64,000 nt of DNA from Actinomycetota bacterium (GTDB taxonomy: Bacteria; Actinomycetota; Acidimicrobiia; Acidimicrobiales; JAJPHD01): assembly GCA_021325455.1 (NCBI GenBank), contig JAJPHD010000017.1, forward strand, positions 1 to 64,000, given 5' to 3'. Of the stretch, positions 5,603 to 10,705 are shown one piece after another. Position numbers and translations under genes: made by a program. The notes beneath the pieces are model-generated. The model was given only the letters and a program-made list of their open reading frames with translations. It did no database searches and was not told the origin of the DNA. How positions within the stretch are numbered: position 1 is the first letter of the stretch; each line of letters begins with the position of its first letter.

Positions 5603-7585
5603 TCACCGGCCCATCTCCTCGTAATGCCCGTACCGGGTGGAGCGGGCCCCGCCCAGCACGTTGACGCTGGAGCTGAACTGCACGATGTTCGACCCGCCGC
5701 TTCCCGAGCCCCGGCTGAGGCTGGAGATGTAGACATCCCCGAGGGCCGGCGACGTCGAGAGCTGGCGGATCCACTGGGCCCCGCCATGGAAGTTGGTGGC
5801 CGTCCCCGAGATGGAGAGGTTGCCGATCACTGCCGTGGGGGCCGGCAACGTGGCTGCGGGGGTGGCTTGAGCGCCCGGCGTTGAGCTCGACGAGGCCGAG
5901 GACCCCGACGAGGCCGAGGACCCCGACGACGCTGTGGGGGAACTGGAGGACGGAGCGGTCCCCGAGGAGGAGGCTCCGGACGCCGACGAGCCCGAGGAGG
6001 ACGGTGACGACGAGGAGCCCGATGACGACGAGGAGCTGGACGGGGCGGTAGCCGGCGGTGGCGGAGTTGCCTGGCCCGAGAGCGAGGTCAGCACCACGTT
6101 GGCGGGCATGCGCCGGGCGATCTGGTCCAGGACGGTGGGCCAGCTGACCTCGTCCGCCACCACGGCAGCCGCCTGGCTCCTGTCGTGGGCCAGGGCCGAG
6201 TCCGTGGCCACCACCGTGTGGTAGCTGGCTATGTCCCGGTTGAGGGCCTGCACCTGGTCCTGTGCCGACACCACCTTGCGATGCTCGGAGCGGGCCTGCC
6301 AGGCCCGGAGACCGCTGAGGCCGGCCAGGAGGACCACGAGGGCGCCGGCGGCCACGGCCACGCCCCGGCGGGCCCTGGCCTGGGCCAGGCGGCGGCGGTA
6401 CTCCTCGGGCAGGAGGTCGAACTGGGACCCGAGGGCCAGGCCGACCGCAGTGGCGAGGAGGGGGTCGATGTGCACCAGGGTGTCGGAGCCCAAGCCGAGG
6501 GTTCTCACCTGGAGCCCGTCGGTCACCCGCCCCACCTCGACCGGGCAGGGGAGGCCCTGGACGAGGGCCCGGACCAGGGCGGCCAGCCGGGTGGCCCCGC
6601 CGGTGGCAAGCACCAGGTCCACGCCGGCGCCGTCCTCCTGCTGGAACAGCTCGATGGCGGCCCTGATCTCGGCCACTATGGACTCGATCACCGGCACCAT
6701 GGCCATCGCTGCCTGGGCCCTGGCCACGGGCGAGCCGGTGTGGCCCCTCTTTATGGCCTCGGCGTCCTCCAGCGGTATCCCCAGGCGACCGGCAATGGCT
6801 GCGGTGAGGGCCATGCCCCCCAGGGGGACCGTGCGAAGCAGCAGGGGAAGGCCGCCCCGGTGGATGGCCACGCTGGACTGCGCCGCTCCCACCACCACCA
6901 CGGCCTCGGCCGGCACGGCCAGCCCTTCCAGAGCCTGGAGGCCGTCTCCGGCGGCCTCCGGGAGCCCGGCTGCCCCCGCAAAGGCCCGGGCCAGGGCGGC
7001 CGAGCCCAGGTCCACTCCCACCACTGTGAGGCCGGCGGCCAAGGCCGCCTCCACCCGGCTGTTCACCAGCTCCCGGTGGGCCGCAGCCACCAGCACCTTC
7101 TGGCGGCGCTGGCCCTCCCCCTCGGGCTCGGGCCCACCTTCTGGGTCGGAGCCCGCCCCCCCCGGGGCGATGTCAGGGGTAGCAGGGTCCGCAGGCAGGC
7201 CGGCGGGGGCGGCCTCGCCGATCACCAGCGGCGAGAGCACGACGTCCTCGGGGGCGAACTGGGGGACGATGTCCTGGATCTGGTACCTGATGCTCTGGGC
7301 CAGCTCGTCGGCGTCGAGGACGGGGGTCTCGGTCCGGCGCGCCATGGCCCGGTTGCCCGAGACCGCGATGCGAACCCTGGTCGTGCTGAACTTGCCGAGG
7401 CGCCACAGCCGGCGGATGGCGTCTGCCGCCGACTCCTGGTCCACGACCGTCCCGTCGACCACAGCCTGGGGAGGCAGGAGCACCTGGCCCACGGCCAGCA
7501 GGCGGGGGAGGCGACCGCTGGTGTCCAGCTCGGCGGCGCGCACGGCGCTGGTGCCGATGTCCAGACCCACGATGCTCTTAGCCAC
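5603..7585 (-). CDS. pilM: Fused type IV pilus proteins PilM and PilN
   Basis: GTG at 7585 is preceded by CGGAGGTAGCT, a strong ribosome site, and yields 660 residues. Residues 1 to about 385 are an actin-like PilM: KSIVGLDIGTSAVRAAEL (phosphate 1), IRYQIQDIVP, VVVVGAAQSSVAI and VLATGGATRL (nucleotide-binding loops). Without a stop, the frame continues into a PilN-like part: FDLLPEEYRRRL at about 389 (the PilM-binding N-terminal motif of PilN), a membrane helix at about 407-428, a PilN-type periplasmic domain, and an unusually long Ser/Pro/Ala-rich linker (about 508-571) before a final beta-rich stretch. PilM and PilN are separate proteins in the well-studied systems. Here the cytoplasmic ring and the membrane anchor are one chain. 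An IS110 element separates this gene from pilC. Confidence 0.85.
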   Translation of the reverse strand: MAKSIVGLDIGTSAVRAAELDTSGRLPRLLAVGQVLLPPQAVVDGTVVDQESAADAIRRLWRLGKFSTTRVRIAVSGNRAMARRTETPVLDADELAQSIRYQIQDIVPQFAPEDVVLSPLVIGEAAPAGLPADPATPDIAPGGAGSDPEGGPEPEGEGQRRQKVLVAAAHRELVNSRVEAALAAGLTVVGVDLGSAALARAFAGAAGLPEAAGDGLQALEGLAVPAEAVVVVGAAQSSVAIHRGGLPLLLRTVPLGGMALTAAIAGRLGIPLEDAEAIKRGHTGSPVARAQAAMAMVPVIESIVAEIRAAIELFQQEDGAGVDLVLATGGATRLAALVRALVQGLPCPVEVGRVTDGLQVRTLGLGSDTLVHIDPLLATAVGLALGSQFDLLPEEYRRRLAQARARRGVAVAAGALVVLLAGLSGLRAWQARSEHRKVVSAQDQVQALNRDIASYHTVVATDSALAHDRSQAAAVVADEVSWPTVLDQIARRMPANVVLTSLSGQATPPPPATAPSSSSSSSGSSSSPSSSGSSASGASSSGTAPSSSSPTASSGSSASSGSSASSSSTPGAQATPAATLPAPTAVIGNLSISGTATNFHGGAQWIRQLSTSPALGDVYISSLSRGSGSGGSNIVQFSSSVNVLGGARSTRYGHYEEMGR

Positions 7586-7689
7586 AGCTACCTCCGTAAG
7601 GGCCCTCTCGGGGGGCGGTTTCGACGTCTGTTGGTTTCGGCAGGCCCCGGCGCCAACTGGAGGGAAGACCGGCCGGGGCTCATGTAAGG

Positions 7690-8003
7690 GACACCGGCAC
7701 CATGGGTCCACCACGAGACTGACGTTCCAGGGTTGCATGGTCATCCCGGCTGGTCCGGGGAGTGGCGTCGAGATCGGTTCTGGGGGAGGCCGTTGAGAGC
7801 CTCGCCCCGTTCTTCTGATTGCCACACCCGGCCCGGCCACGGATGCCCCGGATAAGGGAAGTGGACCGGTCCGAAGAGGCCGGGTCCGGTTGCAGCACAT
7901 GAGTGGGAGCCGCGGTTGGGCGTGTCTCCCTGGGACCGTGGCCTGATGCGTGCGTCGCTCCTGCGGGCGAGCCGGTGGAAGAGACACGAGAGAGAGGAAC
8001 GAC
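7690..8003 (+). ncRNA. Candidate IS110 bridge (guide) RNA region
   Basis: IS110-group transposases are guided by a structured RNA made from the non-coding left end upstream of the transposase gene (established for IS621). Here that end is about 320 bases long with no gene of its own. It contains an 8-bp complementary pair, ACCCGGCC at 7826-7833 and GGCCGGGT at 7878-7885, enclosing a 44-base region that itself holds the palindrome GGACCGGTCC (7863-7872). A stem with a large internal loop is the expected shape of a target- or donor-binding loop. The exact RNA ends and its guide sequences are not determined. Confidence 0.35.
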
Positions 8004-9422
8004 ATGAACCACCGACGGCTCGTCGGCATCGACCTTGGGGTAGCGAGCGCCCCCACGGTGCGGATACTCGACGGCGAAGGGACCACGCTCGCCAAGCGCA
8101 AGTGCTGGCCGACGAAGAAGAGCCTGGCAGAGATAGAAGCCGTGGCGCTCGCCGGCTGCCCGGAGGGAACCACGCTCGAGGTGGTGATGGAGCCGACCGG
8201 ACCGGCGTGGCTGCCCGTCGCCGTCTTCTTCTCGGCCCGGGGCCACCGGGTGTTCCGGGTGTCCTCCCAGAAGGCGGCCGACCTGCGCCGGTTCCTCTCC
8301 CGGCACACCAAGACCAACGGCATCGACGCCGACACCCTGGCTCGCCTGGCGCTGCTCGACCCGGCAGGACTCCAGGTCCTCTGCCTGCCCGACGCCGACC
8401 GGGCGGCCCTCGACCGGCGGGTGCGCGCCTGTGACCGGCTCACCCAGGCCGGGGCTGAGCACAAGCGCCGCATCAAGGACCTGGTCCGCCAGCTCTTGCC
8501 CATGAGCCCGCTCACCGGTGAGCTGGGGGCGGCCGACCTGGCGGTGCTCGAGCGCTTCGGTGATCCGAACACCCTGGTGAAAGTGGGTGAGAAGCGCCTC
8601 GTAGTGCTGATCGCTCGCGCCTCGCACCACCACCAGGGCGCCGAGCGAGCACGCCAGTGGCTGGAGGCCGCCCGCGCCTCGCTCGACCTCTATGGGGACC
8701 ACCCGGCGGTCGCCTTCGCCGAACTAGCCGCCGAGGTGGCGACCGAGGTGCGCCTGCTCCGGGCTCTCCAGGCCGAGCTCGCCGTCCATGCGCCCCGCCG
8801 GGAGGAGGCCTATCGCCGGGTCGATCCCACGGCGCTCGCCCGCTCGCTGCCCGGTCTCGCCGAGGTCGGTGGCCCGGCCCTCGTGGCCGCCATGGGCGAC
8901 CCTCGGCGCTTCTATAAGGGCAAGGCGTTTCGCTCCTACACCGGCCTCGTGCCGCGGGCATCGGAGACCGGCGACACCGACCGCAAGGGTCAGCCCATCT
9001 CCAAGGCCGGACCGTCGCTGCTGCGGACCACGCTCGTGCGGGCCGCCGACCACGCAAGGAAGGTCGATCCCCAGCTCGCCCGCATCTACTACGTCCAGAT
9101 GGTCGAGCGGGGCAAGAACCATCTCGGCGCCCTCTGCGTCGTGGCCGCCAACCTGGCCGAGCGGGGGTGGAGGACGATGGAGCGCGCCACGCCCTACGTG
9201 CTCTGCGACATCGACGGACGGCCCGTCAGCGTGCCCGAAGCCAAGGCCATCATCGCCGAGCGCTTCAGCGTCCCGGCCGACGTGCGCGCCCGCCGGCGCT
9301 CGAAGAAGGGCGGGGGGAAGGCCCCCAAGAACGTCCTCTCGGGACAATCGACACCACGCGCTCGAAGCGGCAGCACACGGGGCCACCTTCCCCCCACGCC
9401 ATCCTCGGCGCTCGCCAGCTGA
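8004..9422 (+). CDS. IS110-family transposase (DEDD recombinase)
   Basis: ATG 8004 follows AGAGAGGAAC. The 472 residues have the two IS110 domains. The N-terminal RuvC-like DEDD domain shows GIDLGVAS (first Asp), VVMEPTGPAW (Glu) and NGIDADTLARL (Asp pair). The C-terminal Transposase_20 domain shows LPGLAEVGGPALVAAMGD, FYKGKAFRSYTGLVP and GQPISKAGPSLLRTTLVRAA, whose Ser is the expected nucleophile. All catalytic residues I can identify are present, so the enzyme looks intact. A Lys/Arg-rich tail (RARRRSKKGGGKAPKN) runs to the right end of the element. It probably catalyses RNA-guided excision and insertion without target duplication. Confidence 0.9.
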   Translation: MNHRRLVGIDLGVASAPTVRILDGEGTTLAKRKCWPTKKSLAEIEAVALAGCPEGTTLEVVMEPTGPAWLPVAVFFSARGHRVFRVSSQKAADLRRFLSRHTKTNGIDADTLARLALLDPAGLQVLCLPDADRAALDRRVRACDRLTQAGAEHKRRIKDLVRQLLPMSPLTGELGAADLAVLERFGDPNTLVKVGEKRLVVLIARASHHHQGAERARQWLEAARASLDLYGDHPAVAFAELAAEVATEVRLLRALQAELAVHAPRREEAYRRVDPTALARSLPGLAEVGGPALVAAMGDPRRFYKGKAFRSYTGLVPRASETGDTDRKGQPISKAGPSLLRTTLVRAADHARKVDPQLARIYYVQMVERGKNHLGALCVVAANLAERGWRTMERATPYVLCDIDGRPVSVPEAKAIIAERFSVPADVRARRRSKKGGGKAPKNVLSGQSTPRARSGSTRGHLPPTPSSALAS

Positions 9423-9476
9423 CTCGTCAAGAGAACCGGTGTTCGATCCCATTGCCCTCTTGACAGCGAGTCCTCC
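9421..9476. repeat. Imperfect inverted repeat at the right end of the IS110 element
   Basis: GACTCGTCAAGAG (9421-9433) is followed after 23 bases by CTCTTGACAGCGAGTC (9457-9472ff), complementary except for a 3-base insertion. It begins at the transposase stop codon and could be a transcription terminator or a recombinase-recognition structure. It contains TTGACA (9460-9465), a perfect sigma-70-type -35 box pointing right. Confidence 0.6.
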
Positions 9477-9484
9477 ATAGGGAA

Positions 9485-10705
9485 TCAGTGGATGAGCTTG
9501 ATGACGTTGAAGATGGGCAGGTAGAGCGAGATCACCATGGCGCCCACGGCCCCGCCCACGATCATGATGAGCAGCGGCTCCAGGAGCGAGGTGAGGGCGG
9601 CGACCATGGCCTTCACCTCGGAGTCGTAGAAGTCGGCCAGCTTCTCCAGCATGGCGTCCAGCGACCCCGACTCCTCGCCCACGGCGATCATCTGGCTCAC
9701 GAGCGGGGGTATGGCAGGGTTCCCCTCCATGTTCCTCGTGATGGACTCGCCCCGGGCCACCCCCAGCTTCGACTCCCTTATCACCTCGGCCACGACCTCG
9801 TTGCCTGCCGTGGAGGCGGAGATGTCGAGGGTCTCCAGGATGGGCACACCCGAGCGGGTGAGCGCCGCGAAGATCCGGGTGAAGCGGGCCAGGGCCGTCT
9901 TGTGGAACAGCTTGCCGAAGACCGGCAGCTTCAGGTACAGGCGGTCGACAATGGCCCGACCCTTGGGCGTCCGCTTCCACCGGGTGAAGGCCACCAAGGC
10001 CACGATGGCCACTATGGCCACTGCCCAGGAGCTGTGGATCAAGATGTTGGAAGCGTGGATCAGGATCCGGGTGGGGAGGGGGAGGACGCCACCGAGGCTG
10101 GCGTACATCTTCTTGAACACCGGCACGATGAACAGCAGCATGGCGGCCAGGATCAAGGACACGAAGCCCACCACGGCCGCTGGGTAGGTCATGGCCGACT
10201 TGATCTCCCGGCGCAGGCCGGCCTGGGCCTCCAGCGTCGACGCCAGGCGCTTCAGGATCTCGTCCAGGGCCCCGCCGGCCTCGCCTGCCCTCACCATGGC
10301 GATGTACAAGGAGCTGAACACCTTGGGGTGCTTGGACAAGGCGGTGGAGAGCGAGGACCCCTGCTCCACGTCGTTGCGGACGGCGGTGACCGTCCGGGAG
10401 AGGGTGGGGTTGGTGGCCTGGTCGGCCAGGACCCCGAGGGCCCGCACCAGGGTCAGGCCGGCATCGATCATGGTGGCGAACTGCCGGCTGAACATGGCGA
10501 TGTCGTTGGCCGAGACCCGGTCGGTCAGGCCGGGGATGGTGACATCGGCCTTGAGCCCGGACTTGGCTCCCTCCTTGATGTCGATGGGGGTGTAGCCCAT
10601 TTCCCGCAGGCGGGTGGCCACGAGGGAGGTGCTGTCGCCCTCGATGTGGCCCTGGTGCAGCTGGCCTTCCCGGTCCCGGACCTTGTAGGAGAAGGTGACG
10701 GCCAC
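9485..10705 (-). CDS. pilC: Type IV pilus platform protein PilC
   Basis: A 406-residue integral membrane protein of the GspF/PilC family. It has two repeated T2SSF domains (about residues 70-190 and 270-395; FSRQFATMIDAGLTLVRAL and FTRIFAALTRSGVPILETL are the matching first helices) and membrane helices near residues 170-195, 220-240 and 375-400. GTG 10705 has GGGAGG upstream, overlapping the pilT stop codon three bases away, so the two are translationally linked. PilC transmits ATPase rotation or motion to pilin insertion. Its stop codon lies a few bases from the IS110 right end, and the gene itself is undamaged. Confidence 0.93.
   Translation of the reverse strand: MAVTFSYKVRDREGQLHQGHIEGDSTSLVATRLREMGYTPIDIKEGAKSGLKADVTIPGLTDRVSANDIAMFSRQFATMIDAGLTLVRALGVLADQATNPTLSRTVTAVRNDVEQGSSLSTALSKHPKVFSSLYIAMVRAGEAGGALDEILKRLASTLEAQAGLRREIKSAMTYPAAVVGFVSLILAAMLLFIVPVFKKMYASLGGVLPLPTRILIHASNILIHSSWAVAIVAIVALVAFTRWKRTPKGRAIVDRLYLKLPVFGKLFHKTALARFTRIFAALTRSGVPILETLDISASTAGNEVVAEVIRESKLGVARGESITRNMEGNPAIPPLVSQMIAVGEESGSLDAMLEKLADFYDSEVKAMVAALTSLLEPLLIMIVGGAVGAMVISLYLPIFNVIKLIH

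What the first reader, a model, noticed from the sequence alone, without database searches (positions are those of the whole stretch)
7690..8003. Candidate bridge RNA in the IS110 left end, with a -35 box waiting in the right end
The 320-base non-coding left end contains ACCCGGCC (7826-7833) and GGCCGGGT (7878-7885), which would close a large internal loop. The right end holds TTGACA (9460-9465) about 17 bases before the element ends. In characterised IS110 elements the circular intermediate joins right and left ends to create a promoter for the guide RNA. A weak -10 candidate (TGTAAG) lies near 7684. This would be a new guide RNA whose target is a pilus operon spacer.
Basis: partly seen in the sequence, partly recalled or inferred. 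Interest (0 to 1): 0.6.

Follow-up and report, generated by a model that had tools for sequence, protein, structure and literature searches.

The report
Bridge RNA aimed at stop codons
A mobile DNA element sitting at the end of a bacterial pilus gene carries a guide RNA whose sequence tracks the insertion sites of its relatives, and most of those sites are gene stop codons that the element rebuilds as it lands.

Summary
The finding is very probably a real bridge RNA. Bases 7681-9487 are an IS110-type element with a 323-bp left end, a 472-aa recombinase and a 65-bp right end. Seventeen homologous left ends fold into one two-loop RNA: 96% of cells paired, 24 of 57 pairs with changes on both sides (11.5 in shuffles). 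The first loop carries two guides that covary with each element's own flanks (left z 5.2, right z 5.8; 0 of 100,000 permutations; one register only). The -35 box is conserved; the circle junction would give TTGACA-N17-AATCAT, so TGTAAG is not the -10. In 12 of 17 related loci the junction is the TGA of an open frame of at least 200 codons (background 8-17%). The clade also has Asn in place of the third Asp of the DEDD motif, a residue IS621 needs. This copy's match to its own site is modest (7 of 11; 2% of CA sites do as well). Everything is comparative; no RNA or movement was observed.

The parts
7681..9487 (+). Whole IS110-type element, CA at both ends as the likely core dinucleotide
   Evidence: Homologous left ends begin CATGTAAG and right ends finish AGGGAATCA, with unrelated flanks outside
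7690..7945 (+). Predicted bridge RNA (start inferred from the junction promoter, end from the last conserved helix)
   Evidence: Consensus fold of 17 left ends; start inferred
7730..7747 (+). 5' hairpin (7730-7735 with 7742-7747)
   Evidence: helix 1, 90.6% of cells paired
7752..7834 (+). Target-binding loop domain: outer stem 7752-7759/7827-7834, closing stem 7762-7767/7820-7825, inner hairpin 7781-7792/7797-7809
   Evidence: helices 2-4, 96-98% of cells paired, 12 pairs with changes on both sides
7774..7781 (+). Left target guide: TCGGTT (7774-7779) plus core positions 7780-7781
   Evidence: Covaries with left flanks of 15 elements, 69.0 against 46.6 expected, 0 of 100,000 permutations
7811..7817 (+). 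Right target guide: TCTTC (7811-7815) plus core positions 7816-7817
   Evidence: Covaries with right flanks of 14 elements, 60.5 against 40.6 expected, 0 of 100,000 permutations
7835..7943 (+). Donor-binding loop domain: closing stems 7835-7842/7936-7943 and 7847-7850/7931-7934, inner hairpin 7859-7871/7878-7891
   Evidence: helices 5-7, 94.6-98.5% of cells paired
7851..7863 (+). Probable left donor guide (ATAAGGGAAGTG) resembling the right end ATAGGGAATCA
   Evidence: L034 has AGGAGA in both guide and right end; L048 co-changes in part
7896..7901 (+). Possible right donor guide CACATG, able to pair with CATGT of the left end
   Evidence: Sequence complementarity only; hardly varies
8004..9422 (+). 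IS110-type recombinase, 472 aa; D10, E63, N105 (D102 in IS621), D108, S333 (S241 in IS621)
   Evidence: PF01548 6.3e-15 and PF02371 4.1e-17; IS621 match 2.7e-6; motif positions
9460..9465 (+). -35 box TTGACA in the right end
   Evidence: TTGAC kept in 14 of 15 right ends at 17-18 bases from AATCA
9483..9487 (+). AATCA, the right tip; joined to T7683 in the circle it gives the -10 candidate AATCAT
   Evidence: Junction scan, 10 of 12 consensus bases against 7 of 12 for the integrated left end
9485..9487 (-). TGA stop codon of pilC (9485-10705), rebuilt by the right end
   Evidence: ORF, T2SSF domain; PilC of relatives ends at the same residue

Best explanation
The element is a bridge-RNA-guided IS110-type recombinase element. 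When it leaves as a circle, the right end (TTGACA) and left end join and create a promoter (TTGACA-N17-AATCAT) that transcribes the left end. The RNA folds into a 5' hairpin, a target-binding loop and a donor-binding loop. The target loop reads about 6 bases left of a CA core on one strand and CA plus about 5 bases right of it on the other; the donor loop reads the joined element ends; the recombinase exchanges strands at the core. Most members of this clade read T-CA-G plus gene-specific bases, which is a C-TGA stop codon seen from the other strand, so they land at gene ends. The right tip AATCA then rebuilds the TGA, so the target protein keeps its sequence. Shown here by comparison: the RNA structure, the target guides, conservation of the -35 box, the location at stop codons. 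Inferred: circle formation, transcription, catalysis, and donor pairing.
For: Two-loop consensus structure with strong covariation; guide-target covariation for both guides in one register only; compensatory change at the base after CA in L046 (CAA/UUG) and L049 (CAC/GUG); L048, whose right end was located afterwards, scores 11 of 11 at its site; conserved -35 and junction promoter; 12 of 17 junctions at the TGA of a frame of 200 codons or more against 8-17% background, seven of these genes recognised by Pfam; PilC end unchanged compared with relatives; IS110 domains and IS621 homology. Mechanism known for IS621 (PMC11208160, PMC11208158).
Against: No RNA, circle or transposition has been observed. 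The window copy matches its own site only 7 of 11, and 2.0% of CA sites in the emptied window do as well. The left guide has CU opposite a CA core, so one core base is unpaired. The register was chosen after looking at the same elements. The third DEDD residue is Asn. Single-sequence folding energy is not exceptional (z -0.89).
Confidence: 0.9

Rival explanations
1. The conserved left end is only an untranslated leader or transposase regulator, and the protein alone chooses the site.
For: No transcript is shown; the donor-side pairing is weakly tested because it hardly varies.
Against: Guide positions covary with the flanks of each element and nothing else in neighbouring registers does; the structure has two guide-bearing loops as in IS621.
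Confidence: 0.04
2. It is a bridge RNA, but the stop-codon pattern is survivorship: insertions are random with respect to genes and only those at gene ends persist.
For: Insertions inside genes are usually lost; intergenic survivors would be enriched near gene ends in any case. Long open frames are common in GC-rich DNA (background 8-17%).
Against: The junction falls on the exact TGA, not merely nearby. The guides themselves encode T-CA-G in most members. L038 and L048, whose left guide lacks U beside the core, are not at stop codons, though two cases are few.
Confidence: 0.25
3. The window copy is a stranded element no longer active, inserted off-target or drifted since insertion.
For: Modest guide-site match; single copy in the genome.
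Against: Intact 472-aa frame, both tips, all RNA helices and the -35 box. This rival concerns the copy and does not contradict the best explanation for the family.
Confidence: 0.3

Closest known systems
IS621 and other IS110-group bridge RNA elements (PMC11208160, PMC11208158)
   Same: Recombinase with RuvC-like and Tnp domains, long left end with 5' hairpin, target loop then donor loop, each loop with one guide per strand, promoter rebuilt across the circle junction
   Different: Core CA rather than CT; longer RNA (about 256 against 177 nt, inferred); left guide does not pair with the second core base; Asn at the D102 position; targets are stop codons rather than REP elements; recombinase 472 aa against about 326
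IS1111 group and seekRNA elements (PMC11187229)
   Same: Same transposase superfamily and RNA-guided site choice
   Different: There the non-coding RNA region lies after the transposase gene and there are subterminal inverted repeats; here the RNA lies before it and no long repeat was found near the tips
IS900 (IS110 family)
   Same: IS110-family element of actinobacteria; recalled from memory to insert at gene boundaries (a lead, not tested)
   Different: Recalled to use translation starts; here gene ends, with the stop codon rebuilt

Membership tests
IS110 family | RuvC-like (PF01548) and Transposase_20 (PF02371) domains | tested here: met
   Both above the curated cut-offs; NCBIfam NF033542 at 135.6 bits, just under its cut-off of 140; IS621 match 2.7e-6
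IS110 family | Complete DEDD catalytic motif | tested here: not met
   Asn replaces the third Asp in all clade members examined; Asp in relatives at 35-38% identity and in 22 of 22 readable actinobacterial IS110 proteins sampled
IS110 family | Conserved catalytic Ser in the Tnp domain (S241 in IS621) | tested here: met
   S333 in PISKAG aligns with MSKAG of IS621
IS110 group | Non-coding left end longer than right end | tested here: met
   323 bp against 65 bp
IS110 group bridge RNA | Two-loop RNA in the left end with structural covariation | tested here: met
IS110 group bridge RNA | Target guides that covary with the flanks | tested here: met
IS110 group bridge RNA | Donor guides that pair with the element ends | tested here: inconclusive
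   Co-change in L034 and partly in L048; otherwise invariant
IS110 group bridge RNA | Promoter formed at the circle junction, RNA expressed | not testable with these tools
   Sequence supports the promoter; expression needs an experiment
IS1111 group | Long right end carrying the RNA and subterminal inverted repeats of 7-17 bp | tested here: not met
   Right end 65 bp. The only 7-base inverted match, ACACCGG at 7691 with 9436, is over 50 bp inside the right tip
Rfam families | Match to any curated RNA family | tested here: not met
   No match on this stretch at E up to 1

The most novel reading that the evidence does not exclude
A clade of RNA-guided recombinases has fixed the stop codon into its guide RNA (T-CA-G plus gene-specific bases) and a stop-restoring tip into its right end, so that it moves between gene ends without changing the proteins, and it works with Asn where its known relatives need Asp.
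Probability: 0.5. Interest if true: 0.66.

Novelty: new variant of a known kind. Interest (0 to 1): 0.52.

Why it matters
Bridge RNAs are programmable, but few lineages have been worked out. This clade gives a guide map supported by covariation (about 6 bases, CA, about 5 bases), a natural change at a residue that is essential in IS621, and a natural example of insertion at gene ends that keeps the protein intact. If confirmed, it would show how a guide RNA can fix a harmless class of sites while still changing its exact target.

Tried and rejected
TGTAAG as -10: rejected on spacing. IS1111-like arrangement: rejected. Rfam: no match. Viral contigs: no homologue; plasmids: only relatives under 60% identity. 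Single-sequence folding energy was uninformative. GGTTGCATG (7731-7739), first taken for the right donor guide, falls in the 5' hairpin and was dropped. L009 and L010 match only the left end and look like decayed remnants; L006, L077, L079, L041 and L075 have no complete left end in hand; all were left out of the guide tests. Two first regular-expression surveys of the catalytic motif were too strict and were replaced by a looser one, which still leaves 8 of 30 loci unread. A structure prediction was not run, because homology to IS621 was clear from sequence.

Full report
What is there. The window holds one IS110-type element, single copy in its genome. Homologous loci of 55-79% protein identity were fetched, mostly from actinobacterial assemblies, one from a MAG labelled Thiocapsa. 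Aligning them fixes the edges: left ends begin CATGTAAG and right ends finish AGGGAATCA, with unrelated sequence outside. In the window these are 7681 and 9487, with CA at both tips as the likely core. The transposase is 8004-9422, leaving 323 bp of left end and 65 bp of right end.

Structure. Seventeen left ends were aligned (A1) and folded together. The result is a 5' hairpin followed by two domains, each an internal loop closed by a stem and capped by an inner hairpin. Of 958 cells 96.2% are paired, and 24 of 57 pairs have changes on both sides against 11.5 in shuffles; sliding the partner by one column roughly halves every measure or worse. The structure was derived from the same alignment, so the percentage paired leans in its favour; the both-sided changes are the stronger evidence. 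Its left half pairs with 7753-7759 and closes the target loop; its right half pairs inside the donor-loop hairpin. Inverted repeats of 8 bases are expected by chance in this GC-rich stretch.

Guides and targets. By eye, the bases before CTGGGG resembled the left flank, and the bases ending in CTG before ATTGCCAC resembled the reverse complement of the right flank. This was tested by permuting targets among elements. Left: 69.0 observed against 46.6 expected (15 elements, z 5.2). Right: 60.5 against 40.6 (14 elements, z 5.8). None of 100,000 permutations reached either. Registers shifted by 1 to 4 bases show no comparable signal. The register was chosen after seeing these same elements, which the single sharp register limits but does not remove. 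One partly independent check: the right end of L048 was located afterwards through its TTGACA, and its site scores 11 of 11. Where the base after CA is not G, the RNA changes with it: L049 has CAC and GUG, L046 has CAA and UUG. Pairing is strongest at left positions 1-6 and right positions 1 and 3-5.

The window copy. Its own site scores 7 of 11, and 2.0% of CA sites in the emptied window do as well. The case rests on the family, not on this copy.

Donor side. The stretch AAGGGAAGUG resembles the right end AGGGAATCA. In L034 both read AGGAGA; in L048 the right end reads AGGGTCACA and the guide AGGUUCGUG, a partial co-change. ACAUG on the other side of the loop can pair with CATGT of the left end, but it hardly varies, so this is complementarity only.

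Promoter. Joining the ends gives TTGACA, 17 bases, AATCAT, 10 of 12 consensus bases; the integrated left end alone reaches 7 of 12. TTGAC is kept at this distance in 14 of 15 right ends (L049 has TTGAA; L046 has an 18-base spacer). The transcript start near 7690 is inferred from this.

Stop codons. The right junction TCA is the TGA of pilC read from the other strand. PilC of several relatives ends at the same residue, so the insertion left the protein unchanged: the T of the stop codon now comes from the right end instead of the old left flank. Of 17 loci with enough right flank, 12 have an open frame of at least 200 codons ending at exactly this TGA. The background is 8% for TGA and 10% for CTGA in the window and 17% (6 of 36) in the flanks; the binomial probability is 4e-9 at 10% and between 4e-7 and 9e-6 at 15-20%. 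Seven of the genes are recognised by Pfam, pilC included. The other frames are unverified, and in L033 another frame is longer. L038 and L048, whose left guide lacks U next to the core, are not at stop codons, which fits choice by the guide rather than mere tolerance; two cases are few.

Catalytic motif. The protein aligns with IS621. At the IS621 D102 position every clade member examined has Asn, while relatives at 35-38% identity and 22 of 22 readable proteins of an actinobacterial sample have Asp. In IS621 mutation of D102 abolishes recombination, and D102 bonds to Gly242 next to the catalytic Ser (PMC11208158). That close relatives sit at different sites with matching guides suggests the Asn enzymes move; this is inference.

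Comparison. It works like IS621 (PMC11208160). Because one defining feature, the complete DEDD motif, was tested and not met, I file it as a variant of the IS110 kind rather than a plain member. Searches of the paper library found no report of stop-codon targeting or of this Asn in IS110, but that library is incomplete and ISfinder was not at hand.

Noticed in passing
window 5603-7588, - strand: The gene beyond the element's left side looks like a fusion of PilM and PilN (661 aa, PF11104 at 162-388 and a PilN match at 589-642).
   Followed up: no
L009 1501-1668 and L010 1501-1601: Matches to the left end alone, without the target loop or a recombinase; they look like decayed remnants of this family.
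   Followed up: partly
L042 2121-3504: The recombinase gene of this homologue is split by about 1.4 kb of other DNA, probably a second insertion.
   Followed up: no
L036, about 318 bases after the transposase match: The right end lies unusually far from the transposase gene, so extra DNA may have entered this element.
   Followed up: no
window 8004-9422 and homologues L033-L049, L074-L080: Asn at the third position of the DEDD motif throughout the clade.
   Followed up: yes
window 5603-8572, - strand: The reading frame of the pilM-like gene stays open antisense through the whole left end and part of the recombinase (989 codons), probably a GC-content effect.
   Followed up: no
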